From positions 1 through 64,000 of the IMG/VR virus record IMGVR_UViG_3300028376_000003: a DNA stretch of 64,000 bases; one strand, 5' to 3'. The position numbers and the translations under genes are program-made. The notes beneath the pieces were generated by a model. It saw nothing but the letters and a program-made list of their open reading frames with translations, was not told the origin of the DNA and ran no database searches. Shown piece after piece: positions 417 through 57,675 of this stretch. Position 1 is the stretch's first letter. The number at the start of each line of letters is the position of its first letter. Source of the stretch: a virus.

Positions 417-441
417 AAAATGCCCTCTAAGGGCATTTTTT
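415..441. terminator. Bidirectional hairpin terminator
   Basis: The stem AAAAAATGCCC / GGGCATTTTTT with loop TCTAA lies between two convergent genes. It has A/T runs on both flanks, so it can serve both strands. Confidence 0.85.
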
Positions 442-2101
442 ATTTAACATTTATTGTTTTTATCGCATTTTGAAACCAATGTGGTAAGAATTTGCTAGAA
501 TATCTAATCACGTCTCCAAAAGAGGAATCTATTATTATAGTATCTCCATAATCTAACTTAGACCTAACTATTCTACCACAAGCTTGTTGTAGAAGTGCTG
601 ATGTCATCCATGAATACCAATCAGAGTTTTGCTTTTGTCTTAGTTTATTCTTTTTAGATGCCAATGATGGGTATGGTATTTTAGCAATTATCTGAAACCT
701 AGCATCATCATTATCAAACGAAACACCAGTACCAACAGATGGTGAAACTAATACAGTTGGTTCTTTTGATTCTTTGTGCATTTTAAGCATTTCATCCTTA
801 TTTGACGAGTCATGGAATATAAGTCTTGGATTTTCAATACTTTCTTGTATCCATCTTTGTAATTCAAAAGAATTTGTATGTATTATTCCTTTCTTACCTT
901 TATATTTATTAAGTATTTTTTTAATATAAGGTATGTAATTTTTAAAAGTTTGTTCTTTATTTTTAAATGACATTTTACCAAGTGGCATATAAAATATTGG
1001 CCTTGATTTAACATTGAATGGTGAAGGTATATTATAGTATGTAGCTCTTTTAACATCCAATCCATTTAGGTTGCAAAACAGTTCTTTATTTAAAATTGTC
1101 CCTGACATCAAAAACACCATATCATATTGACTAAATATGTATTTATCAAGGTAATCGTAAGCCCAGACAGGCTCTAATGATAATTCTCTCTTTTTAGTCT
1201 TCTCATTAAAAATTGCTTCAACTACCCAGTTATCAGGATTTATTTTATATTCTTTTAAAAAAAGTTCTATCTTTATAGCCAATTGTTTAAGATCTGTTAT
1301 TAAGTTCATTAATTTAACATCTGGGTTTTTATTACTGTTAAGAACTTTATCTAGTCTAAGATTTCTTTTTTCTTTTTTCTGGTCTCTTTTAACAGATGAT
1401 AAGTTCATTTCCATTCCCTCAATAGTATCTACTATTTCATTACTTAGGTATTGTAGAAAATCAACATATTTTTCAATACCTTTAACATATTCTAGTTCTC
1501 TTAATAGCTCTTTTTCTCGTGAAAACTTATATCGCTTGATCATAGCATGTGTCACTTTTACAGAGATAAAACTAGACATCACATCGTCAAACTGATGGCT
1601 TTCGTCAACAATCAAAACTTTAGAATTTCTCCTTTCCATTACTTTTGTGTTGTTCATAGCATAAAGAATATAAAGGTAAAAATTACTTAAAGATATGCCA
1701 CCATTTATAAAGTTTTCTCTTGCAGATGTATAAGGACATTCTTCACACTTGGTCTTGTTAAGTTTATTAAATTCAGATCCCTGTGCACATGAACAAGCAT
1801 AACTGGCACACTCATAATTATCTTTTCCTTTTAAGTTTGCTATTGATTCGTAAGTGTCTGAATACTGATCTTGTAATATTTTAGTATTTGTTATGACATC
1901 TACTCTAGTTGCTTTATTTACATTTTTCCTATACCAGTCAGTAATCATAAATGTTAGGTGTGATTTACCAGTACCAACTGGTAAATCTAATAGGAAAAAC
2001 TTCTTCAATGGATTAGACTTATACTCCGAATCTATAAACTCCATAGTTTCTCGTTGCTCTTTCCTTGGTTTAAATTTGGTTAAGTCTTTTTTAAATGACA
2101 T
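440..2101 (-). CDS. XPD/DinG-like SF2 DNA helicase with probable Fe-S cluster
   Basis: ATP-dependent DNA helicase of the Rad3/XPD/DinG type. Visible motifs: Walker A PVGTGKS at residues 41-47; five cysteines at about 98, 103, 105, 119 and 122 between motifs Ia and II, where this family ligates a 4Fe-4S cluster; motif II DESH at 166-169; a late GTGVSF segment; and motif VI QACGRIVR near the C-terminus. At 553 residues it is shorter than DinG (about 700). It is the last gene of a minus-strand series that starts with the GIY-YIG gene and includes a nuclease, a helicase and a methyltransferase; 57 bases separate it from the methyltransferase. A role in phage replication or repair is likely; a link with the restriction-like cassette is possible. 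Confidence 0.85.
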   Translation of the reverse strand: MSFKKDLTKFKPRKEQRETMEFIDSEYKSNPLKKFFLLDLPVGTGKSHLTFMITDWYRKNVNKATRVDVITNTKILQDQYSDTYESIANLKGKDNYECASYACSCAQGSEFNKLNKTKCEECPYTSARENFINGGISLSNFYLYILYAMNNTKVMERRNSKVLIVDESHQFDDVMSSFISVKVTHAMIKRYKFSREKELLRELEYVKGIEKYVDFLQYLSNEIVDTIEGMEMNLSSVKRDQKKEKRNLRLDKVLNSNKNPDVKLMNLITDLKQLAIKIELFLKEYKINPDNWVVEAIFNEKTKKRELSLEPVWAYDYLDKYIFSQYDMVFLMSGTILNKELFCNLNGLDVKRATYYNIPSPFNVKSRPIFYMPLGKMSFKNKEQTFKNYIPYIKKILNKYKGKKGIIHTNSFELQRWIQESIENPRLIFHDSSNKDEMLKMHKESKEPTVLVSPSVGTGVSFDNDDARFQIIAKIPYPSLASKKNKLRQKQNSDWYSWMTSALLQQACGRIVRSKLDYGDTIIIDSSFGDVIRYSSKFLPHWFQNAIKTINVK

Positions 2102-2158: not shown

Positions 2159-3781
2159 TTATTTTAAACTTAAATCTATATCTCTTGGTATGTCAAGTAA
2201 GTCTCTAAAATAGTTATTGTCTAGTTCTTTCCCATCTTTTATTATTTCTTTAATATTTATATCTGGGACCCACATAAAAACCTTTGAGTTTATGTGTTGC
2301 TTTATTTTACGAAGTCTTACTAAGTAAGAGAATATATCTGATTCTAAGTATTTCTTAAAAACCAATAATTCTTCTTCTGTATCAAAATCAAAGAATGTAA
2401 ATGATTGACTACAAATTTCTCCTGGTTTAGCTATCACGCTTCGGTTATAAAATTCTTGATCCATTCCTCCTTTTTTACTAGTTGCAGGTAGAAGTAACTT
2501 CCATCTACCAATCTTCTTTAAACGAACATCAACACCTGATATATATTTAATATTACCCTTATACCTAGAAACGTGGCATTTGTACTGCCCTACGTGATAC
2601 AACCTCTTATCATTAGTTATTATTCCAAAATGTATTTCAGAATTTAACCTATATGTTATATTTTTTTTATTTATTACTTTTTCTATTATTAAGAATGAAT
2701 TCTTAGAAGTATCATTTGGTATTATATCATATTTAGACAAATCAACATACTCACCATTTACAAGCACATCATCTTTTGGATTACTTTCACTATCAATCAT
2801 AGAAATAATTGCACCCCCTTTTAAATCAAAGTCTTCAAATACCTTGTTATCATCTACTTTGTATATTTCTCTAAGACCAAGCTTATTTATCATTCTATTT
2901 CTAAAATCACTTCTACCAACTTTACCAAGCCACTTACCAGGTGATGTACTAGTAGATAGTTTTGATATAGTGGTTGCTTTTTCTATAAAGTTATGATAAA
3001 CATCTTTAAATGAGTCTGTCTTTTCGTTTACTTTTTTAAACGGTGGGTCTTGTATTATAAGATCAAACCTTTTTATTCCCCAAACTTCTTCCATATGGTA
3101 TTCGAAGTTATCATCTATAAAATCTCCCCAATAAATATTTAGTCTATATTCACTTTTTATATCAACACAACAGAGCCAGACAAAACATGTTTTTAAATCT
3201 TTATCCCCAAAATATATACAGTTTTCAATAATCCATTTAAACCTATCTCTCTCGTTTGTAATAATATTTTTTAGACCTTCCATAAATTTCTTTATAGCTA
3301 GTATAAGCAGACTACCACTACCACCACATGGATCTAGTATTTTATGATATGGATTTTCCCAAAATGAATTATTGTATCTGCTTACCATATCAATCATAGG
3401 TATACCTAGCTTATCTAAAGGTGTTACTACTTTTGTATCTATCCTTTTCTCTAGGTCTGAAATATGAATATAAGAAGATAATATATTATATATTTTATCT
3501 AGCTTTTCTATTATTGATGTTTTCTCATACGAGATATTATTTATTAATGACCATTTATATCTATCATCGCCTAGAGTGCTTAGAATACCATGTCTTTTAT
3601 CTACAACGTCTTGTGTCTTTATATAGTCATTTAATTCTATATCATCAGAAAATCTATCTAATGCAACATCTTCTATACATGTAATAAATAAAGATGATTG
3701 TCTAGAAAGTAAGTAACTTTGGTAAACATCTGAGGAACATCTAAAATCTTCACTATGTGTGTTTTTAATATCTAATATCAT
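2159..3781 (-). CDS. Adenine-specific DNA methyltransferase (Type I/ISP/Eco57I-like)
   Basis: Predicted N6-adenine DNA methyltransferase of 540 residues. A motif X-like segment (VVTPLDKLGIPMIDMV) near residue 118-134 precedes motif I ILDPCGGSGSLL (about 148-159) for S-adenosylmethionine binding, and motif IV QDPPF is at 244-248 (the family usually has NPPY or NPPF). This order is that of gamma-class enzymes. The roughly 250 residues after the catalytic core could be a target-recognition region. The gene follows the SF2 helicase at 3794-5470 after 12 bases and the PD-(D/E)XK nuclease before it, matching the nuclease-helicase-methyltransferase-recognition order of single-chain Type ISP restriction enzymes such as LlaGI (inference). 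It could also be a solitary protective methylase. Confidence 0.85.
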   Translation of the reverse strand: MILDIKNTHSEDFRCSSDVYQSYLLSRQSSLFITCIEDVALDRFSDDIELNDYIKTQDVVDKRHGILSTLGDDRYKWSLINNISYEKTSIIEKLDKIYNILSSYIHISDLEKRIDTKVVTPLDKLGIPMIDMVSRYNNSFWENPYHKILDPCGGSGSLLILAIKKFMEGLKNIITNERDRFKWIIENCIYFGDKDLKTCFVWLCCVDIKSEYRLNIYWGDFIDDNFEYHMEEVWGIKRFDLIIQDPPFKKVNEKTDSFKDVYHNFIEKATTISKLSTSTSPGKWLGKVGRSDFRNRMINKLGLREIYKVDDNKVFEDFDLKGGAIISMIDSESNPKDDVLVNGEYVDLSKYDIIPNDTSKNSFLIIEKVINKKNITYRLNSEIHFGIITNDKRLYHVGQYKCHVSRYKGNIKYISGVDVRLKKIGRWKLLLPATSKKGGMDQEFYNRSVIAKPGEICSQSFTFFDFDTEEELLVFKKYLESDIFSYLVRLRKIKQHINSKVFMWVPDINIKEIIKDGKELDNNYFRDLLDIPRDIDLSLK

Positions 3782-3806
3782 TTGTTTATTTGTTTATTTG
3801 TTTTTA
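3782..3806. repeat. Short tandem repeat at helicase/methyltransferase junction
   Basis: Three near-perfect copies of an 8-base unit TTTATTTG/TTTGTTTA fill the gap between the methyltransferase start and the helicase stop. Slippage here would alter the spacing, and possibly the coupling, of the two genes. Confidence 0.6.
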
Positions 3807-5470
3807 TAGTTAGATATCCTATTTTGTTTAAGTAATTCTATTGGCGATAGAGAATTTAATAAAGCACGTTTCTTAGATTCGTTAGTTTGTTTGTCAATAA
3901 TTTCTATCTTATGTAAAATGGATTCTATAAAATAGGCTTTTTTATTTTTCCTATCAAGTCGGTTTAGTCCATCGTCTTGGTAGACTAGTTCTGACTCTGC
4001 CATATCTTCTCCTATTGAAACTTCAAATCTAGGATCAAATCCCCACCTATCTCTCATATCTTGTATAGTAAAAGCAAGTTGGTCTTTAGTAAATTCACTT
4101 CTACTATCCCAATATGGTAGAATTACTGCACAGTATGGCTTTACCCATTTAGACAAATCATTATTATTTATCAAGCCTTTTCTGATATTACTTCTATCCA
4201 TTTTATGAAGTCTAGTAGAACGACCAACGTTTTGTATTATTTTTGCCCTAGTTGGCATTTTGCCTTGTAAAAACATAACACCAGTTATACCTGGTACATT
4301 TATACCTTCGCTAAATATATCATACTGTAGTATAATTACTTTTTCATCATCTTTTATCTTTTGTATCTTATCCACAAATTCATCTCTACTCTTAATCCAT
4401 TCATTATTTATAGCATGGTTGCATTCTTTATCTTTGTTGTATGATGCACCAGCACATATAGTGACATCAGGCATAATTTCAGTTAGTACTTTATGCATAT
4501 CCCACATTCTGGGTACAGACTCACACCTAATTAATATTTTGGGTGATATGGTTTTTGGTTCGTTAGAATTCTTCTTTAACCATTCTTTATGTGATTTGAA
4601 TGTATCTTTTACAAACTTAGATTTATTTTCAATAGAGTCGTAGTTTTTATCCTCCAATATCTCGGAAGGTAGTGATATATGTATAATTGGCGTTGATATA
4701 TATGATTTCTGAATACATTTTTTGAAAGGAACTTGGTAGATGTCACCAAATATGTCCTTGTTGTTCATTAGGAATATTTCTGATGACTCATCCTCTTTTA
4801 TAAGTTCCTTGTCAACATCTTTTGGAGTGGCAGTGAAGAAGAAACGCCTCTTAGTATTTATTATTTCATAGGACTTTTTAAAATCAGAGTCTTCTTTTTC
4901 AGATGCTAATATATGAGCCTCGTCACAATATATAATATCTAGGTCTATGTCTTTTAATTTATTAAGGCTATTATAGGTTGATATAATAACTGTTTTAAAG
5001 CCATTATAGTCATTATCTCTAACTATCTGATTTATCTCTCCTGTGCTTAAAGATGATCTAAATATTCTATCTACTGTAAGCCTAGAACTTATATCTTGTG
5101 TTGTATTATAATCGAATAGTGAGTTATTAAAATTTCTAGCTAGTACTTTATCTTTTTGTAAGACTTTATTAATATCAAGCGACATAGATCCAACTGTTAG
5201 AAACTTTACTTTGCCTATTAGTTTTAACTCACAAAAAAAGTCTATCAAATCCTTTAGGTGTTGGTTATTTAAACTAAGACGATGGCTTGCTATTGCAACT
5301 TTTGTATCTCTTGTCTTTATCAACCTCCAAAGTATGTGCAAAATCATAACATAACCCTTTCCAACACCAGTAGGTACTCTGAATTGGTGTCTTGTATTAT
5401 TCTGTAAGAGTTTAAACATTTCCCTTTGATCATCATTAAGTGTTAATAGTATTTCTTTTATATCTCTCAT
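3794..5470 (-). CDS. SF2 (DEAH) helicase, restriction-subunit-like
   Basis: Predicted ATP-dependent DNA translocase of 558 residues. Motif I is RVPTGVGKG at about 31-39, motif II DEAH at 183-186, motif III TAT at 213-215, and motif VI QNVGRSTR at 413-420. This is the layout of type I/III restriction-subunit-like and UvsW-like helicases. Its ATG overlaps the stop of the upstream nuclease by 4 bases (translational coupling), and the methyltransferase starts 12 bases after its stop. The tight coupling suggests one complex: nuclease, DNA translocase and methylase. Taken alone, a UvsW-like recombination helicase would be an alternative. Confidence 0.85.
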   Translation of the reverse strand: MRDIKEILLTLNDDQREMFKLLQNNTRHQFRVPTGVGKGYVMILHILWRLIKTRDTKVAIASHRLSLNNQHLKDLIDFFCELKLIGKVKFLTVGSMSLDINKVLQKDKVLARNFNNSLFDYNTTQDISSRLTVDRIFRSSLSTGEINQIVRDNDYNGFKTVIISTYNSLNKLKDIDLDIIYCDEAHILASEKEDSDFKKSYEIINTKRRFFFTATPKDVDKELIKEDESSEIFLMNNKDIFGDIYQVPFKKCIQKSYISTPIIHISLPSEILEDKNYDSIENKSKFVKDTFKSHKEWLKKNSNEPKTISPKILIRCESVPRMWDMHKVLTEIMPDVTICAGASYNKDKECNHAINNEWIKSRDEFVDKIQKIKDDEKVIILQYDIFSEGINVPGITGVMFLQGKMPTRAKIIQNVGRSTRLHKMDRSNIRKGLINNNDLSKWVKPYCAVILPYWDSRSEFTKDQLAFTIQDMRDRWGFDPRFEVSIGEDMAESELVYQDDGLNRLDRKNKKAYFIESILHKIEIIDKQTNESKKRALLNSLSPIELLKQNRISNYKNK

Positions 5471-6159
5471 ATTTTATAGCTATAATTCTTTTTGGAATAC
5501 ATCTCAGTTAGTCTATCAGTTTCCATACTTTTTATGCTTTCATAAACAACCTCTTCATATGAATCCCAAAATGCTTGGTTGTTATCAATTAGCTTACATA
5601 TAGATTCTTGATTTATTATTCGGTAAAGACCATTGAATACTTGTGAGTTTGTATACCAGTGGAGACCTGCACAGTTTGTAAATATAACCATAGAGTCTTT
5701 CCTAGCATAGTCAACATTGAAATCTGTTATGCTTTTAAGACCAAATTGTTTTACATCTCTCTCTTTGAGTTCATACGTTGGATTATTTCTAAACTTTACT
5801 TGTACAGTACATGGACCACCTTCAATATTCTTACCATATCCGTCTACCCCATTATCATCTTCTGCTGGTACTGGTAAGTAGTCATATACACCTATTCTAT
5901 TGTCTTTGCCGTAAATTATGAAGAACACCTCTGCAAATATTTCAAATAAATCCCCTGCAAACTTCATAGTACCTAGTTTTAGAGCTTCTTCTATTTCTAA
6001 ATCACTATATCCATACTCTAATGAAGATTTACTAATTAAGCTTATTTGTTTACAAATATTTGAAAAATTACCAGCAGATGCCATCATTGAGAAGTATTGT
6101 CCAAAATCTTTCTGAACAATATTGTAAAAAGCTTCATGTTTTATTATATTATCTTTCAT
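5467..6159 (-). CDS. PD-(D/E)XK (Mrr-like) nuclease candidate
   Basis: A 230-residue protein with a plausible Mrr-type nuclease core: acidic residues in a helix (E73, E77), then NGVDGYG (D106), then CTVQVKFR (Q120-x-K122), the D...QxK variant used by Mrr and Type ISP nuclease domains. The remaining sequence has no recognised domain. It overlaps the helicase start by 4 bases and the upstream GIY-YIG gene by 11 bases. By position and fold it could be the cleavage module of a split restriction enzyme with the next two genes (inference). Confidence 0.6.
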   Translation of the reverse strand: MKDNIIKHEAFYNIVQKDFGQYFSMMASAGNFSNICKQISLISKSSLEYGYSDLEIEEALKLGTMKFAGDLFEIFAEVFFIIYGKDNRIGVYDYLPVPAEDDNGVDGYGKNIEGGPCTVQVKFRNNPTYELKERDVKQFGLKSITDFNVDYARKDSMVIFTNCAGLHWYTNSQVFNGLYRIINQESICKLIDNNQAFWDSYEEVVYESIKSMETDRLTEMYSKKNYSYKI

Positions 6160-7933
6160 AAGTAAATTTTAGTGATCCTATATCCCATATTCTATAATGG
6201 TGTTGTTCGTGCATTATGTCAACTTCAGTTTTATTTATATCATATCCATTCGAAACTAATATGTCTTTTCTAAAGTTGAACCTATTCTTTCTATTATAAT
6301 CTATTATATAGAAGTAATTTGATATTGTTTTGTTTAAATACTTGAAATTTAACTTTTTGTATAAATTACCCTCGCTCCAACGATAGTCAGCATAGCTTAG
6401 AATATAATTGGGATTGTATTTTTTTAAAAAATACTTAAATAATTTTGATGCACCACCCATTATAGAAAATCCTCTTTTGTTACAGAACCTAAGAAGTTCA
6501 TAATAGTCTTTTTTGCTCTTCTGTCCTAAATTCTTTCTAAGAGAACCAAATGTTATAAGCGATACTAATTCATCCTCATAGAATAATCCTATCTTTACTT
6601 TAGATCCAACAAATCCTTGTAGATGGTTATCGTTTAAAAATGTTCTAATTAGACTATTGTCCTTTATTTCTCGTATATCACATTTCCTTGCACCAATTTT
6701 TTTAGACTTCCCATACAAGTTAATTAATCTATATTTTATTATTTCTTTTTTATCTTTCCACTCATCGCTGAATATTATAACATCAAAGTCTTCCTTGGTC
6801 ATTTTATCTGAGCTAAATATTTCGCTATATTTTATGATATCACAATATTTTATCTTTAATTTTTTAGATGTTATGACATCATTTAATAATATTGCAGTAT
6901 TGTCCATGCTTCTAATAAACATAAATAGCTCAGTTATATTTGAGTTGTTTTCTGCCTTTTCGAATATATATTTAAAATCTTTTATATGTATAACTATCTC
7001 TTGGTTATCACTATCAAGGCAGATACATGTTTTTTTGTTTCTTTTTACAAGCTTATACTTTTCTTTTTTATAGTAGAAATACTCATTTTTATTTATCAGA
7101 AACTTGTTTTGTTTAATATTGTCAGAATCATTCTTATATTTAAAATAATACCTAGTGGGGTCTTTGATATCGCCTCTGCAACACTTAGATATTATAGACT
7201 CATTTATGTTAGTTTCTAGTGATGCAGATTTGACTGAATCAAATAGATTTATATAATTCATATCTAGGTCAAACATTTCAACTTCTTTATTAAATACTTG
7301 ACAAGCCTTTCTTATACTCTCATTTGAAACCTTATTTGCTCTGTGTTTTTTAAGTTTAGCTTTTACATCATCACTATGTGTCTTTCCATACATAGGGTGG
7401 TTATTTCCACTTATTAAATTAGAATGGTTGTCTTTGGTTTCTTCACTATGTTTCTTGCCATAAAAACCATTTCCCTTTCCCTTTTGCATGTCTGACATTT
7501 TGTTTAAAATTTCTTTTTTATGATTCCACTTTAGATTCTTAGCTAAATAGGTTTTTGATATTTTATTTTTTGTTATTTGAGAAGGTTTACTACTAAGCCT
7601 ACCATCACCACCATCAGTTAAATTTATTAATGTACCAGCTGATTTGTCTCTTCTTCCAATAACCTTAATATATTCCTTTTCATACAGAATAGCATCTTCG
7701 TTAGATAATTCTATTTTTATTTTAAAACTTATAATCTCAATACCTTCTTCTTTGAGCTTTGATATCTTGTTTCTTTTAAAGGGGGATTTATCATGTAGTG
7801 TTTCTTTTATTCTATTACCAATCCCCTTACCTATGTAAAAGGGTTCATAATTGAAAGTTATATTTTTATAAGCATAGTCACCAGGTTTAGACGAATCTAA
7901 TAGTGCATAAACATAGTAATTATCTTTCATCAT
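6149..7933 (-). CDS. GIY-YIG homing endonuclease with NUMOD3/NUMOD1-like region and Hef-like C-terminal domain
   Basis: Free-standing homing nuclease of 594 residues. The GIY-YIG core is at the N-terminus (YVYALL, then FYIGKGIGNR near residue 32-41). NUMOD3-type DNA-binding repeats follow (GKKHSEETK and YGKTHSDDVK at about 165-190), then a NUMOD1-like helix-turn-helix segment (about 200-265). The C-terminal 180 residues resemble a domain common in Hef-type phage homing proteins (NHLQG, LLRFCNK, SYADYRWSEGNLYKKLNF), which has a GNAT-like look at its end (inference). It lies directly downstream of a DNA polymerase gene that stops between catalytic motifs A and B, and carries its own promoter-like element. 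Confidence 0.85.
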   Translation of the reverse strand: MMKDNYYVYALLDSSKPGDYAYKNITFNYEPFYIGKGIGNRIKETLHDKSPFKRNKISKLKEEGIEIISFKIKIELSNEDAILYEKEYIKVIGRRDKSAGTLINLTDGGDGRLSSKPSQITKNKISKTYLAKNLKWNHKKEILNKMSDMQKGKGNGFYGKKHSEETKDNHSNLISGNNHPMYGKTHSDDVKAKLKKHRANKVSNESIRKACQVFNKEVEMFDLDMNYINLFDSVKSASLETNINESIISKCCRGDIKDPTRYYFKYKNDSDNIKQNKFLINKNEYFYYKKEKYKLVKRNKKTCICLDSDNQEIVIHIKDFKYIFEKAENNSNITELFMFIRSMDNTAILLNDVITSKKLKIKYCDIIKYSEIFSSDKMTKEDFDVIIFSDEWKDKKEIIKYRLINLYGKSKKIGARKCDIREIKDNSLIRTFLNDNHLQGFVGSKVKIGLFYEDELVSLITFGSLRKNLGQKSKKDYYELLRFCNKRGFSIMGGASKLFKYFLKKYNPNYILSYADYRWSEGNLYKKLNFKYLNKTISNYFYIIDYNRKNRFNFRKDILVSNGYDINKTEVDIMHEQHHYRIWDIGSLKFTYER

Positions 7934-7971: not shown

Positions 7972-9498
7972 CTATATTTCAGATTCTAGCCTAGATATCT
8001 TATTAGTAAGGCGTTTAAGTTCTTCTTTTTTCTGCATCATAATTTTTTTATTCTTCTTTCTATCTGCATATACATCTTCTAACATTCTAAGTGTTGGTGA
8101 TAAACGCTTGTTAAACACTGTTCCATTGGCACACACGACATGATTTACACTATCTATTGGTTTTTCGTTGGTACATCTTGTTTTATCATTTGGTTTTTGG
8201 ATACCAACGAAGTTTTCTGGTGATATGAAAAATTGCCTTTGTGTTGTTGGATATAGAGAAGCAAAATCATAACAAACAACCCACTGATTAAGCCCCACAA
8301 CAGGATCTCTAACCCATCCACCTTTTATTGTGGACTGTACAGGTCCTCTATCTTCTTTAAACAAAACAGTATTATCTTGTTCCCTGAATCTGTTTCTAAG
8401 GACACCTTCTGTTATTGCTAATGATGCTAACGAGTTGTTCATATGAGATATAACATCCACAATTCTTATTCTTGATAATGATGATATAGCAAATATTATT
8501 GATATATAATTTCTAGATTCGTGTATTTTTTGTACTAAGACTGAATCAACTGCATTATAATACATAAAAGTTTCGAAGTCATCTTCATATAGCTTTTGTA
8601 AAGAACCATTGTATTTTATTTTCTCCACATCAACTAGCTTACTAGCTACAAAATCTAGAGAAGAACTTTCTTTAACTTTGATAGATGTGTCTGCTATTTC
8701 ATATAGTTGCATATAGTCAAATACCATTCTATGTGCAGGTAGTTCAAATTCAGCACCCCATTGTTTAGTTATTTTATTAGTAAGTGACGATACTTTAGGA
8801 TCTATGACATATTCTTTTCCGTTAATTGTTTTAGAAAGTTTTCTAGATCTATTTACTAGGTATAACCAGTCATACTTTAAAAAGTTCCAACCAGTTAAGA
8901 CTGGCATTTTTGGAATCATTTTATGAAAGAAGTTATACATCATATCAAACTCGTCATCGTATTTAACATATCTTAATTTGTATTCAACACCAAATTTTTC
9001 AAAATACTTGTTAGTGTTGTTTCTTATACGATCTTGCATGGCTTTAGGCATATCTTTAAGACCTAATAGGATAATTTTATCATCGTATACAATTGATATT
9101 GATAAGACTTTTGTTGCTGCTCCTTCTTTTACTAGATTTTCGTCATTATCATATACATCTGCTGCTTCTGGAAATCCATCTACAATTTCTGTCTCAATGT
9201 CAATAAAGAATATTTTAGGAGTATTGAATGCAAATATTTCATCCTTTTCTTCTTCTGGGAGAGCATCTAAAAATTCATATACAGTGTATCTATCGGGATA
9301 TGATACCTCTACTTGTTTAACTCTCTTATCATCCCACGATTTGTACTTTGGGTGTTGGTACGGGTCATCATCTTGACAAGTCTCATACTTCATTGGATTA
9401 TCCCAATTATAGTATTTTAATTTTATATCACCTGATTTATCAACATAACTAACAACTAATTTCTTTTTGTGTTTCAGATATTGTGTTTCTACTAGCAT
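7972..9498 (-). CDS. Family B DNA polymerase, N-terminal half (split gene)
   Basis: Replicative DNA polymerase fragment of about 508 residues with the complete 3'-5' exonuclease: Exo I FIDIETE, Exo II TGWNFLKYD, Exo III YNAVDSVLV. The first palm motif, Motif A (YDFASLYPTTQR), is also present. The frame then ends about 90 residues later in a helix (RKKNKKIMMQKKEELK) equivalent to the start of the fingers. Motif B (KxxxNSxYG) and motif C (DTDS) are missing and do not occur elsewhere in this window. The start is set at ATG 9498: the longer frame to 9540 needs a TTG, and an AT-rich promoter-like element lies between. Split gene 43 homologues are known in some T4-like Aeromonas phages. Confidence 0.9.
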   Translation of the reverse strand: MLVETQYLKHKKKLVVSYVDKSGDIKLKYYNWDNPMKYETCQDDDPYQHPKYKSWDDKRVKQVEVSYPDRYTVYEFLDALPEEEKDEIFAFNTPKIFFIDIETEIVDGFPEAADVYDNDENLVKEGAATKVLSISIVYDDKIILLGLKDMPKAMQDRIRNNTNKYFEKFGVEYKLRYVKYDDEFDMMYNFFHKMIPKMPVLTGWNFLKYDWLYLVNRSRKLSKTINGKEYVIDPKVSSLTNKITKQWGAEFELPAHRMVFDYMQLYEIADTSIKVKESSSLDFVASKLVDVEKIKYNGSLQKLYEDDFETFMYYNAVDSVLVQKIHESRNYISIIFAISSLSRIRIVDVISHMNNSLASLAITEGVLRNRFREQDNTVLFKEDRGPVQSTIKGGWVRDPVVGLNQWVVCYDFASLYPTTQRQFFISPENFVGIQKPNDKTRCTNEKPIDSVNHVVCANGTVFNKRLSPTLRMLEDVYADRKKNKKIMMQKKEELKRLTNKISRLESEI

Positions 9499-9510
9499 AA
9501 CTAAATTTTT

Positions 9511-9521
9511 TATATATCTCT
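9511..9521 (-). promoter_or_regulatory. Weak AT-rich promoter candidate for the polymerase fragment
   Basis: AGAGATATATA on the minus strand, 12 bases upstream of ATG 9498. It lies inside the longer reading frame and so supports the shorter start. Confidence 0.35.
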
Positions 9522-9564
9522 TATAGTAGAAGTAAACCAAAAAGTTATAAATTATTTTAAAAAT

Positions 9565-40664: not shown

Positions 40665-41588
40665 TTATTCTATTATTTTATATTTTTTTTTAATTTTATC
40701 CAAATTAGGCATCTCTAAATCGTTATCTCTAATGAATGTTTGAAGTCTATCTAACATAACAGTATCTCTGTTTCTAACTATTTCATAGTCTATAAAATCT
40801 TCTATCATAAAAGTATCCGCTTTATTAATAAAAGTGTTTAGTAATAGATGTACTGGATTCCTGTATATATATATTGTTCCATTTACTTCTGATATGTGTT
40901 CTAAATCTTTTAATTTATTAAAAGAACAATTAAAATTACCACCCACTGTCTGTGGGCCACTTTCTAATGTTTTTAAGTTATTTCCACTACAATTAAAATC
41001 CCCCTCTACTTTTTGTGGGCTACCATTCAATGATTTTAATTTTTTATTATAAGAGCAATCAAAATACTTACCTGCTGTTTGTGGACAACCTTCTAATGTT
41101 GTTAATTCATTGCTAGAACAACCAAAACCCCCAGTTACTGTTTGTGGACAACCTTCTAATGATTGTAGTTCATTATGGCTACAATTAAAATTCCCCTCTA
41201 TTGTTTGTGGACAACCTTCTAATGATTGTAGTTCATTATGGCTACAATTAAAATTCCCCTCTATTGTTTGTGGACAACCTTCTAATGATACTAGTTTATT
41301 ATATTCACAATCAAAAACACCACCTACTGTATGTGGACAACCTTCTAATGTCTTTAATTTATTATGAGAACAATCAAAATTACCACTCACATAATTAAAT
41401 TTAAGAGGTAGATATTTTAAGCCTTTTTTATCTAAATATACATAACTACCAACATCAATACTTAAATCATCATTAATGGTATATCTTGTTATATGATACT
41501 TTTCACACACTTGCATAACTTCTTCCCTAGTAGTTGGAAATTTAGGACTATTGCTCTCGAATATTTTATAAGTTTTTATATGTTTCAT
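40665..41588 (-). CDS. Leucine-rich-repeat-like protein, copy 3 of 3
   Basis: 307 residues, the longest of the three, with tag MKHIKTYKIFES, about eight repeats and the shared tail. Two consecutive repeats are identical at the DNA level (63 bases each), so this gene is still changing length. It is the first of the three in transcription order, right after the small gene at 41591. Confidence 0.75.
   Translation of the reverse strand: MKHIKTYKIFESNSPKFPTTREEVMQVCEKYHITRYTINDDLSIDVGSYVYLDKKGLKYLPLKFNYVSGNFDCSHNKLKTLEGCPHTVGGVFDCEYNKLVSLEGCPQTIEGNFNCSHNELQSLEGCPQTIEGNFNCSHNELQSLEGCPQTVTGGFGCSSNELTTLEGCPQTAGKYFDCSYNKKLKSLNGSPQKVEGDFNCSGNNLKTLESGPQTVGGNFNCSFNKLKDLEHISEVNGTIYIYRNPVHLLLNTFINKADTFMIEDFIDYEIVRNRDTVMLDRLQTFIRDNDLEMPNLDKIKKKYKIIE
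41158..41283. repeat. Perfect 63-bp tandem duplication within the LRR gene
   Basis: 41158-41220 and 41221-41283 are identical and encode one 21-residue repeat each. With no silent differences, the duplication must be recent. Confidence 0.95.
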
Positions 41589-41855: not shown

Positions 41856-43631
41856 CTAAATGTCTTTTTTAAATCTATACTTATCATAGCGATTAGTTAG
41901 TTCAATTAAGAATTTATTCCTAACAATATCTTCGTTTAAAAATTCGAATGGGAATAGGTTACTCATACCACTAATCATTTCCATAAAATCATTATATCCA
42001 GAATCTCTTTTCCTAACATCATACTGTGAAGTATCTCCCATCATAACTGCCTTAGAATCAGTTCCTAATCTAGTTACCCATAGCATAAGTTGTTTTATCG
42101 TAACATTCTGACACTCATCTAATAACATTATACAATTATCATATGTTGATCCTCTCATATATGCTAATGGTTCAAATATAATCTCATCATTTTCAAATAA
42201 TTCATCTGTTGTTTCTTTACCTATTATCTTGACGAATGTTGTATAATAAGATTGCTTATAAGGTTGTAGCTTCTCATCCTTATCACCAGGCAAAGCACCT
42301 AAGTTTTCACCACTCTCTTGTATGGGTTTAGTGATTATAATGGTCTCTATTTTCTTATCAGCTAGAAGTCCTAATGCTGCATAACAGGTGGTAAATGTAT
42401 TGTGTGTGACTATATAATCATTGGTTAGATATAGACTTGACTCGCTATCGACCTTTATACACTGTGCTTCTTTTTTGCCTATTAACTTAGCACCAACGAT
42501 GTGCCTACGTGGTATGTATTTAGTTTTAGGAACTACCAAATCCTTCTTTCTTTTAAGTTTAAAAGGATTTATATTTGGATTCATTTTTATTGAAATTGTA
42601 TAAGCCAATCTACCTGTTTTTAGTTCCCCATTGTATGTATATTTATTATAAACTGGTGTGTGGTAAGTCCCTGTACCACCTAGTGATTGAACTAATTCAA
42701 TAACATCAGCGGTTAACTTTTTAGATGTTGATGTAAATGATACATAAAATCCATCTTTACTCACTGTTCCATCAGTATCCATAAGACCTCTTAATAGTTC
42801 TATTCTATTGGTTATAGAGTTAAATTTATAGCAATTAGGTATAAATTTTTGATAACTTAATTTACCAAATAATCCTATCTTAATGAGATACTGCTTATAT
42901 CTATTCTTATATTCAGATATGTTTTTAGTAATACAATAATCAATATCATTTCTCTTAACTAAATTCATGCCATCATCAATAGAATTTTTTATAGTTTCTA
43001 TTATTTCTGAATCCACAGAAGTAAATCCTATACTTCCTCTTAGACAACCATCTCCAATTAAACATCCAATAACATATGGATCAATATCAATATCTATCTT
43101 GTTAAATTCTACTGGCTCAGTTATAGGTATAGTGTGGTTTATTCTATTTCTCTTTGTATATAATGTCTCCACAATTTCAGTTGTCGTTTTTACAGTACCA
43201 TCTAACGGTGATTTATACCTTTTCCTTATACCATTTGTTGTTTTTGTCCACTTCCTATAGCTTCTATCTTTTTCAGTTTGGGTTAACCATAAATGATCTC
43301 CACAACATTCAGTTTTAGTTCCATCAGAAAATGATATTTCCCATATTTCCTTTTTACCTTGTGGGAATATACCAATAACTCTAGTAGGTTTCCCATCCTT
43401 AGAAATAACATTATCATTTAATTTTAAATCTCCCATTCTAGACCACCCATTTGGTGTTAGTACAGGAGTTTCCATAGGTTGTGCTTTACTAGTACCTGCT
43501 GGACCGTGTACTGTAGTAAGTATATTATTTCTAATACCTTTGTATAATTTGTCTTGTTTAATACTTAACTCTACACCACTTTTAGTAAACTGTTGTTTGT
43601 TTAATGAATTCTTTTTTTTAGATTTTCCCAT
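41856..43631 (-). CDS. phoH: PhoH-like ATPase interrupted by an intein
   Basis: 591-residue precursor; about 229 residues after splicing, close to the usual size of phage PhoH. The P-loop GPAGTSK|T is split at residues 49/412 by a 362-residue intein. Exteins: HGPAGTSK before the intein; TFTTCYAALGLLA, IIITKPIQESGENLGALPG, AYMRGSTYDNCIMLLDECQN (Walker B) and VMMGDTSQYD after it. PhoH-like ATPases are nucleic-acid-associated and often phosphate- or stress-linked; the exact phage role is unknown. Without splicing the ATPase cannot bind ATP, so splicing must work for activity. A consensus promoter-like element lies 14 bases upstream. Confidence 0.92.
   Translation of the reverse strand: MGKSKKKNSLNKQQFTKSGVELSIKQDKLYKGIRNNILTTVHGPAGTSKAQPMETPVLTPNGWSRMGDLKLNDNVISKDGKPTRVIGIFPQGKKEIWEISFSDGTKTECCGDHLWLTQTEKDRSYRKWTKTTNGIRKRYKSPLDGTVKTTTEIVETLYTKRNRINHTIPITEPVEFNKIDIDIDPYVIGCLIGDGCLRGSIGFTSVDSEIIETIKNSIDDGMNLVKRNDIDYCITKNISEYKNRYKQYLIKIGLFGKLSYQKFIPNCYKFNSITNRIELLRGLMDTDGTVSKDGFYVSFTSTSKKLTADVIELVQSLGGTGTYHTPVYNKYTYNGELKTGRLAYTISIKMNPNINPFKLKRKKDLVVPKTKYIPRRHIVGAKLIGKKEAQCIKVDSESSLYLTNDYIVTHNTFTTCYAALGLLADKKIETIIITKPIQESGENLGALPGDKDEKLQPYKQSYYTTFVKIIGKETTDELFENDEIIFEPLAYMRGSTYDNCIMLLDECQNVTIKQLMLWVTRLGTDSKAVMMGDTSQYDVRKRDSGYNDFMEMISGMSNLFPFEFLNEDIVRNKFLIELTNRYDKYRFKKDI
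42399..43484 (-). mobile_element. Intein with LAGLIDADG homing endonuclease
   Basis: Residues 50-411. It starts AQPMETPVLTPNGWSRMGD, an Ala1-type intein start, and ends YLTNDYIVTHN with the block G His-Asn, followed by Thr as +1 residue. The centre holds two LAGLIDADG-type motifs (VIGCLIGDGCL near 188-197 and LLRGLMDTDGTV near 279-290), so the homing endonuclease looks complete. Ala1 inteins splice by a route that skips the first acyl shift. Confidence 0.9.
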
Positions 43632-56895: not shown

Positions 56896-57675
56896 ATGAA
56901 GACGAATAATAATATCTTCTTGAATGATGACAAAATGGTTGATGATGGGAAGACAAATAACCTATTATGGTTTGGTAACTGCTTGGAAGAAATGAAACGA
57001 ATACCAGACAAGAGTATTGATTTTATTTGTTGTGATTTACCTTATGGTATGACCGCACCTAAATGGGATGAGATAATACCCTCTGATAAACTTTGGGAGC
57101 AATACAATAGAATTATATCCAAAAACGGTACAATAGCCTTATTTGCTTCCCAGCCCTTTACAACGAAAATAATAAGTAGCAACGAAAAGGATTATAGATA
57201 TGTTTGGTATTGGGTAAAAAATCAAGCAACAAACTTTTTTCACGCAAAACGTATGCCTACAAGAAAAGTTGAAGAGATTGTTATTTTCAAAAAGGGAAAA
57301 TATTACCCACAAATAACAGAAGGACACGAACCGACAAATAGTGCGAAAGGATGCTCTAATGGAACAGCCTATCACGGGACTAATAAGAGAGATTATAAAG
57401 GTGGAAAAACAACAAGATATCCAACTAATTTACTTGAATTTAAGTGTGTTGATAATTATAGTAGAATACACTCTTCCCAAAAACCAATAGACTTGATAAA
57501 ATACTTAATTGAAACATATACTGATAAAAAAGATACTGTTTTAGACAATACTTGTGGAAGTGATACAACAGGAATTGCAAGCTTTGAACTTGGTAGGAAT
57601 AGTATAAGTATTGAGAATAATTTGTCTATTTATAACCTTGCTATAAAAAGAAGGAAAGAAAAGAATATTAAATAG
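56896..57675 (+). CDS. DNA methyltransferase (D12/N4-N6 beta-class order)
   Basis: A 259-residue DNA amino-methyltransferase. CCDLPYGM (D47-Y50) is the catalytic DPPY-type motif IV; the SAM-binding motif I near the C-terminus reads VLDNTCGSDTTG (usually VLDPFxGSGTT), so one glycine is Asp; ISIENN follows in the place of motif II. The IV-before-I order fits the beta class. It is flanked by 21-bp direct repeats, suggesting acquisition as a cassette between the gp46-like gene and 57683. Self-protection from host restriction is the likely role. Confidence 0.87.
   Translation: MKTNNNIFLNDDKMVDDGKTNNLLWFGNCLEEMKRIPDKSIDFICCDLPYGMTAPKWDEIIPSDKLWEQYNRIISKNGTIALFASQPFTTKIISSNEKDYRYVWYWVKNQATNFFHAKRMPTRKVEEIVIFKKGKYYPQITEGHEPTNSAKGCSNGTAYHGTNKRDYKGGKTTRYPTNLLEFKCVDNYSRIHSSQKPIDLIKYLIETYTDKKDTVLDNTCGSDTTGIASFELGRNSISIENNLSIYNLAIKRRKEKNIK

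What the first reader, a model, noticed from the sequence alone, without database searches (positions are those of the whole stretch)
2159..6159. Phage-borne split Type ISP-like restriction cassette
Three coupled minus-strand genes encode, in order, an Mrr-like PD-(D/E)XK nuclease (NGVDGYG...VQVKF), an SF2 helicase (PTGVGKG, DEAH, QNVGRSTR) and a gamma-class adenine methyltransferase with a long C-terminal region. This is the exact domain order of single-chain Type ISP enzymes such as LlaGI and LlaBIII. Nuclease and helicase overlap by 4 bases, and the methylase follows after 12. A three-subunit, phage-encoded version could act against competing phages or host mobile DNA, and I know of no description of it.
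Basis: partly seen in the sequence, partly recalled or inferred. Interest (0 to 1): 0.82.

Follow-up and report, generated by a model that had tools for sequence, protein, structure and literature searches.

The report
Phage-encoded three-part DNA-cutting restriction system
A very large bacterial virus carries three adjacent genes for a DNA cutter, a DNA motor and a DNA-marking enzyme that together look like a restriction system; relatives of the set recur in other viruses, including cultured ocean cyanophages, with the target-choosing part swapped, which suggests that these viruses mark their own DNA and cut everyone else's.

Summary
Window 2159-6159 (minus strand) encodes a PD-(D/E)XK/Mrr-like nuclease, an SF2 helicase and a gamma-class adenine methyltransferase, tightly coupled. 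The three genes form a real unit. In a distant search, 19 of 20 viral loci with the nuclease also carry the methyltransferase beside it, and 18 carry both partners, in several gene orders; cultured T4-like cyanophages (S-CAM7, Bellamy, ACG-2014f) have the set too. All three genes, with the neighbouring homing endonuclease, are absent from the same site in the closest complete huge phages (634 and 642 kb). The helicase is not UvsW: it groups with the module helicases, whose profile hits the Type ISP enzymes LlaGI and LlaBIII best in the whole PDB. Between relatives the methyltransferase gene, or its part after the catalytic motif, is swapped while nuclease and helicase stay conserved, as expected for exchangeable sequence specificity. 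In cyanophages the methyltransferase itself appears split into two proteins. Strict Type ISP membership fails: three chains, no Type_ISP_C domain. Best reading: a multi-subunit, ISP-like ATP-dependent restriction-modification module that marks phage DNA and cuts unmarked host or rival DNA. No activity has been shown.

The parts
5467..6159 (-). PD-(D/E)XK / Mrr-like nuclease, 230 aa; invariant E73, E77, D102, G104, D106, Q120, K122
   Evidence: ORF; phrog_7683 8.5e-28; invariant residues in 19 relatives; AlphaFold pLDDT 82; Foldseek best PDB matches EcoO109I, Ecl18kI, with EndoMS and Hjc further down; family members hit Mrr_cat_2 (best 0.0017)
3794..5470 (-). SF2 helicase-like ATPase, 558 aa (PTGVGKG, DEAH, TATP, QNVGRSTR)
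   Evidence: Pfam ResIII/Helicase_C; groups with module helicases and not with UvsW; family profile best PDB hits LlaGI 2.8e-20 and LlaBIII 3.7e-20
2159..3781 (-). gamma-class N6-adenine DNA methyltransferase, 540 aa; motif I at residue 149, motif IV QDPPF at 244; variable segments about 1-120 and 280-330; conserved C-terminal end RLRKIKQH..WVPDI
   Evidence: Pfam Eco57I and N6_Mtase; TIGR02987 1.3e-8; motif positions; sliding identity
6149..7933 (-). GIY-YIG/NUMOD homing endonuclease immediately upstream (overlaps nuclease start by 11 bases); gained or lost together with the cassette
   Evidence: Pfam NUMOD3 1e-13, LEM-3_GIY-YIG 6.3e-6; absent with the cassette in the two closest phages
440..2101 (-). 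DinG/XPD-like helicase: downstream border of the islet, present in relatives without the cassette; not part of the module
   Evidence: phrog_2488 3.7e-96; synteny
7972..9540 (-). N-terminal half of family-B DNA polymerase: upstream border of the islet; not part of the module
   Evidence: phrog_2062/262; synteny

Best explanation
The three genes encode a multi-subunit, ATP-dependent restriction-modification module that works like a Type ISP enzyme taken apart. The methyltransferase recognises a short DNA sequence and methylates adenine in phage DNA. On unmethylated sites it hands over to the SF2 motor, which moves along DNA and brings the Mrr-like nuclease to make double-strand breaks. In a lytic huge phage the unmethylated DNA is the host chromosome and co-infecting elements, so the module would attack these while progeny DNA is marked as self. 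The specificity part of the methyltransferase gene is exchanged between relatives. The module is an accessory islet next to a homing endonuclease that may have helped to move it. Shown: genes, motifs, predicted nuclease fold, conserved co-occurrence, swapping pattern, joint absence from relatives. Inferred: methylation, translocation, cleavage, complex formation, targets, mobilisation.
For: Co-occurrence: 19 of 20 viral loci found by the nuclease also carry the methyltransferase beside it and 18 carry both partners; of the two without a visible helicase, L024 is cut by a contig end and L028 has the nuclease near a contig start. Orders differ (Nuc-Hel-MT, Hel-MT-Nuc, Nuc-MT-Hel, MotI-Nuc-MT-Hel), so adjacency is kept through rearrangement. 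All three genes are absent as a set from the complete 634- and 642-kb relatives whose polymerase is 77% and 72% identical; the polymerase and DinG genes that border the cassette are there separated by only about 0.7-0.9 kb holding an unrelated HAD-like ORF. Nuclease: predicted fold and fully conserved catalytic positions. Helicase: module profile hits LlaGI and LlaBIII first in the whole PDB, about ten orders of magnitude ahead of UvsW. Fusions link the functions: helicase-methyltransferase in L010 and phage MA01, nuclease-helicase in bacteria (L053, L054). Specificity swapping: window versus L006 nuclease 83%, helicase 81%, methyltransferase 53%, with similar third-position identity; L019/L020 nuclease 97%, helicase 92%, MotI 92%, MT 32%, with DNA homology lost over the MT gene; in L004/L018 DNA homology breaks just after the NPPF motif of the MT gene and resumes at the helicase. 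MT is the least conserved gene in 42 of 45 pairs of one group.
Against: No activity, complex or methylome data. The LlaGI/LlaBIII affinity is seen with a profile dominated by cyanophage module helicases; a profile of the window lineage alone does not retrieve them. The nuclease did not retrieve Type ISP nucleases by sequence and its TM-scores to known structures are modest. The methyltransferase model was too poor to show a recognition domain (pLDDT 45). Swapping shows variable specificity of the methyltransferase, not that cutting depends on it. Related cyanophage helicases also occur beside methylases without this nuclease.
Confidence: 0.7

Rival explanations
1. Modification-only counter-defence: the methyltransferase protects phage DNA from host restriction, while helicase and nuclease serve replication, recombination or repair and do not depend on methylation.
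For: Phage methylases are usually read as anti-restriction (PMC7824862). The cassette lies in the replication gene cluster. Related cyanophage helicases occur beside Dam-type methylases without the nuclease.
Against: The helicase is not UvsW and cyanophages keep a separate UvsW. The nuclease is nearly always beside helicase and methyltransferase, and all three are missing together from close relatives, which is odd for housekeeping repair genes.
Confidence: 0.17
2. A nuclease-helicase effector that senses damaged, replicating or modified DNA (Hachiman-like or Type IV-like), for which the methyltransferase sets self versus non-self without classic sequence-specific restriction.
For: Bacterial relatives are nuclease-SF2 helicase fusions without a methyltransferase domain (L053, L054). 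Hachiman is a known nuclease-helicase complex (PMC12278908).
Against: Repeated swapping of the methyltransferase gene or its part after motif IV, with nuclease and helicase conserved, points to sequence specificity. PADLOC found no match for nuclease or helicase.
Confidence: 0.08
3. Unrelated phage genes that happen to be neighbours, carried by homing-endonuclease activity.
For: A GIY-YIG homing endonuclease is adjacent and overlaps the nuclease start; the cassette is an accessory insertion.
Against: The same functions are linked in distant phages with different gene orders and different flanks.
Confidence: 0.03

Closest known systems
Type ISP restriction-modification enzymes (LlaGI, LlaBIII)
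   Same: Mrr-like nuclease, SF2 motor and gamma-class adenine methyltransferase, in that order in the window; module helicase profile hits LlaGI and LlaBIII best in the PDB.
   Different: Separate polypeptides, no Type_ISP_C specificity domain, methyltransferase split in cyanophage relatives, encoded by phages.
CglI / NgoAVII three-gene ATP-dependent R-M systems
   Same: Separate methyltransferase, nuclease and DEAD-family ATPase genes; cleavage needs the nuclease-ATPase complex and ATP (PMC4267653).
   Different: Their nuclease belongs to another family and their methyltransferase to another class (own knowledge, not tested here); not phage-borne.
Bacterial nuclease-SF2 helicase-HA repeat proteins (L053 Ferrigenium, L054 Malikia)
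   Same: Homologous nuclease fused to an SF2 helicase.
   Different: No methyltransferase domain; helicase falls outside the module helicases.
Chlorovirus restriction-modification systems
   Same: Virus-encoded methyltransferase plus endonuclease genes side by side; the endonucleases are thought to degrade host DNA early in infection (PMC7019647).
   Different: Infect eukaryotic algae; no helicase motor is described for them in the passages read.
Jumbo-phage Mom-REase modification systems
   Same: Predicted phage self-modification with an attached nuclease for host or rival DNA (PMC7824862).
   Different: Acyl modification by a GNAT enzyme, no methyltransferase and no helicase.

Membership tests
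Type ISP restriction-modification | all activities in one polypeptide | tested here: not met
   Three separate ORFs with own starts and stops
Type ISP restriction-modification | Mrr-family PD-(D/E)XK nuclease | tested here: met
   Predicted fold, invariant E73/D106/Q120/K122, weak Mrr_cat_2 hits of family members
Type ISP restriction-modification | SF2 helicase-like ATPase of the ISP kind | tested here: inconclusive
   Module profile best PDB hits LlaGI/LlaBIII; window-lineage profile alone does not retrieve them
Type ISP restriction-modification | gamma-class N6-adenine methyltransferase | tested here: met
   Eco57I and N6_Mtase hits, motif I before motif IV
Type ISP restriction-modification | C-terminal specificity domain (Pfam Type_ISP_C) | tested here: not met
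   No match to PF18135 in the genome even at E 10; control genomes ring
Type ISP restriction-modification | all-helical coupler domain between motor and methyltransferase | tested here: inconclusive
   Methyltransferase N-terminus predicted helical but at very low confidence
Type ISP restriction-modification | cleavage after convergence of two translocating enzymes | not testable with these tools
   needs biochemistry
UvsW-type phage helicases | clusters with T4 and cyanophage UvsW | tested here: not met
   Separate clade; UvsW profile retrieves all five UvsW at E <= 1.4e-216 but not the window helicase at E 10
Type I R-M | separate HsdS specificity subunit | tested here: not met
   None among the neighbouring ORFs of the cassette
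Type III R-M | beta-class Mod with Res carrying its own nuclease domain | tested here: not met
   Methyltransferase is gamma order and the nuclease is a separate gene
Known defence systems in PADLOC (DISARM, BREX, MADS and others) | hits of nuclease and helicase to system models | tested here: not met
   No hits for nuclease or helicase; only weak generic MTase hits

The most novel reading that the evidence does not exclude
Large T4-like cyanophages and huge phages carry a previously undescribed class of multi-subunit translocating restriction-modification systems. They have an interchangeable methyltransferase/specificity subunit and, in cyanophages, an AdoMet-motif subunit encoded apart from the catalytic subunit, and are used offensively to destroy unmarked host or rival DNA.
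Probability: 0.4. Interest if true: 0.82.

Novelty: new variant of a known kind. Interest (0 to 1): 0.64.

Why it matters
Virulent phages are usually seen as victims of restriction that at most carry protective methylases. A complete motor-driven restriction module, conserved in cultured marine cyanophages and in huge phages and with swapped specificity parts, would mean that such phages wage sequence-specific DNA warfare on hosts or rivals. It names several 'hypothetical' genes in isolates such as S-CAM7, Bellamy and ACG-2014f, so the idea can be tested with existing phages. A methyltransferase split between its AdoMet-binding and catalytic halves would also be an unusual enzyme.

Tried and rejected
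UvsW identity of the helicase: rejected by tree and profiles. Chance neighbourhood: rejected by co-occurrence and joint absence. Membership in named PADLOC defence systems: no hits for nuclease or helicase. Single-sequence PDB searches with helicase and methyltransferase found nothing; nuclease profiles found only chance hits; methyltransferase profiles gave only sub-threshold M.TaqI hits. Structure of the methyltransferase was unusable. Literature searches found no description of this module, but the held library lacks most subscription journals. NCBIfam gave only a partial Alw26I-type methyltransferase match for the methyltransferase. A first attempt to align the L010 fusion and the motif-I part by guessed coordinates failed for frame reasons and was redone.
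Full report
What is there. The helicase has Pfam ResIII and Helicase_C, the methyltransferase Eco57I and N6_Mtase, and the nuclease only the PHROG family of unknown function phrog_7683. GC content of the cassette matches the window.

The nuclease. An alignment of 19 sequences (window plus relatives 24-82% identical to it) keeps E73, E77, D102, G104, D106, Q120 and K122 without exception. AlphaFold with this alignment gives pLDDT 82 and an order of elements (long helix, three strands, helix, strand) that fits PD-(D/E)XK enzymes. The best PDB matches are EcoO109I and Ecl18kI, with EndoMS and Hjc-type resolvases further down the list, at E-values from 1e-3 upward and with low TM-scores, so the fold class is supported but not a close relative. 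Three family members hit Mrr_cat_2, best 0.0017.

The helicase. Cyanophages that carry the module also carry a separate UvsW. In a tree the window helicase sits with module helicases and far from T4 and cyanophage UvsW. A profile of seven module and related helicases has LlaGI (2.8e-20) and LlaBIII (3.7e-20) as its best hits among all PDB sequences, ahead of XPB (4.9e-11) and UvsW (2.6e-10). A profile of the window lineage alone does not find them, so this link rests on the wider family, to which the window helicase belongs (1.1e-47 to the cyanophage module profile).

The unit. A distant search with the nuclease alignment found 20 viral loci. Scanning their ORFs showed a methyltransferase gene beside the nuclease in 19 and both helicase and methyltransferase in 18; in L024 the contig begins inside the methyltransferase gene and in L028 the nuclease lies near a contig start. 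Orders vary: Nuc-Hel-MT in the window, L013 and L016; Hel-Nuc-MT, with two other genes before MT, in L014; Nuc-Hel-MT-MotI in L017; Nuc-MT-Hel-MotI in L004, L018 and S-CAM7; Hel-MT-Nuc-MotI in Bellamy and several contigs; MotI-Nuc-MT-Hel in ACG-2014f. In bacteria the nuclease is fused to an SF2 helicase (L053, L054). In L010 and phage MA01 the helicase is fused to the methyltransferase catalytic half.

A split methyltransferase. Cyanophage modules carry a 132-146 aa protein with the motif-I half of an adenine methyltransferase (TGEVFTP...DPSAGSGNFL) and a separate protein with the catalytic NPPY motif. The window enzyme has both halves in one chain: the motif-I profile matches its N-terminal half (9.6e-6; 4.8e-9 for L006). 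That the two cyanophage proteins form one enzyme is inference; the NPPY protein also has its own degenerate motif-I-like segment.

Swapped specificity. Between the window phage and L006 the nuclease is 83%, the helicase 81% and the polymerase 86% identical, but the methyltransferase 53%, with similar third-codon-position identity in all. In cyanophage contigs L019 and L020 the nuclease is 97%, helicase 92% and MotI 92% identical while the MT protein is 32% identical, and DNA similarity is lost over the MT gene only. In L004 and L018 DNA similarity breaks inside the MT gene just after the NPPF motif and resumes at the helicase. In the largest group MT is the least conserved of the four genes in 42 of 45 pairs. 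This is the pattern expected of a target-recognition part that is exchanged while motor and nuclease are kept.

Where it sits. The polymerase half next to the cassette is 77% and 72% identical to those of huge phages LR745206 (634 kb) and LR756502 (642 kb); genomes of 634, 636, 642 and 735 kb are reported as the largest of the Mahaphage clade, with predicted Bacteroidetes hosts (PMC7162821). In both close relatives the polymerase half and DinG genes are separated by only about 0.7-0.9 kb containing a HAD-like ORF on the other strand, without homing endonuclease, nuclease, helicase or methyltransferase, and no nuclease, methyltransferase or module helicase was found elsewhere in those complete genomes (with nuclease and helicase searches validated on G000, G003 or G004). 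The cassette is therefore an accessory islet gained or lost as a set, possibly moved with the adjacent GIY-YIG/NUMOD homing endonuclease (inference).

How it most likely works. Inference from the anatomy: the methyltransferase recognises a short sequence, methylates adenine on phage DNA and, on unmethylated sites, loads the motor, which translocates and lets the nuclease cut, as described for Type ISP enzymes (PMC4872093, PMC4666363). Because the phage, not the host, carries it, host chromosome and rival DNA are the unmarked targets. Chlorovirus restriction enzymes are thought to degrade host DNA in this way (PMC7019647). None of these activities was shown here.

What it is and is not. It works like a Type ISP enzyme in parts, but fails two tested membership criteria (single chain, Type_ISP_C domain) and so is not filed as Type ISP. 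Three-gene ATP-dependent systems such as CglI and NgoAVII are known (PMC4267653), and jumbo-phage R-M and Mom-nuclease systems have been noted (PMC7824862). I found no description of this module in the papers held. I rate it a new variant of a known kind, with fair confidence in restriction-modification and low confidence about the biological target.

Noticed in passing
G000 contig 117158-119407 (-), locus L055 1159-3408: The same phage contig encodes a 749-aa Cas3-like HD + DEAD helicase (Cas3-like_C_2 1.8e-13, HD 1e-4). A simple repeat script found nothing clearly CRISPR-like; near 119.6 kb there are dense repeats spaced about 66 bases.
   Followed up: partly
window 41856-43631 (-): One 591-aa ORF matches terminase large subunits in its N-terminal part and PhoH in its C-terminal part.
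   Followed up: no
window 7972-9540 (-): Only the N-terminal half of a family-B DNA polymerase is encoded here; no C-terminal half was found with phrog_262 in three related contigs. Related huge phages also have a polymerase ORF of only about 510 aa at this place.
   Followed up: partly
L006 11329-12165: The close relative carries an extra Dam-like methyltransferase between DinG and the next gene that the window phage lacks there.
   Followed up: no
L006 13459-15411: Replicative helicase gene appears interrupted by an intein-like insert; only inspected by eye, while relatives L064/L065 have an uninterrupted 444-aa version.
   Followed up: no
L049 5436-6396 (P-SSM2), L050 4659-6396 (S-SKS1), L051 2121-6432 (MA01): Cyanophages without the nuclease still carry the motif-I mini-protein next to a catalytic-half or helicase-methyltransferase fusion protein, so split methyltransferases occur beyond this module.
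   Followed up: partly
window 41076-41285 approx.: Tandem-like array of a 63-base repeat.
   Followed up: no
window 56896-57675 (+): A second DNA methyltransferase (phrog_67, 4.5e-61).
   Followed up: no
L019 about 7329-7370 and L020 about 4315-4356: Short near-identical elements (32-42 bases) recur at different borders of the cyanophage module in two contigs; possible promoter or recombination elements.
   Followed up: no
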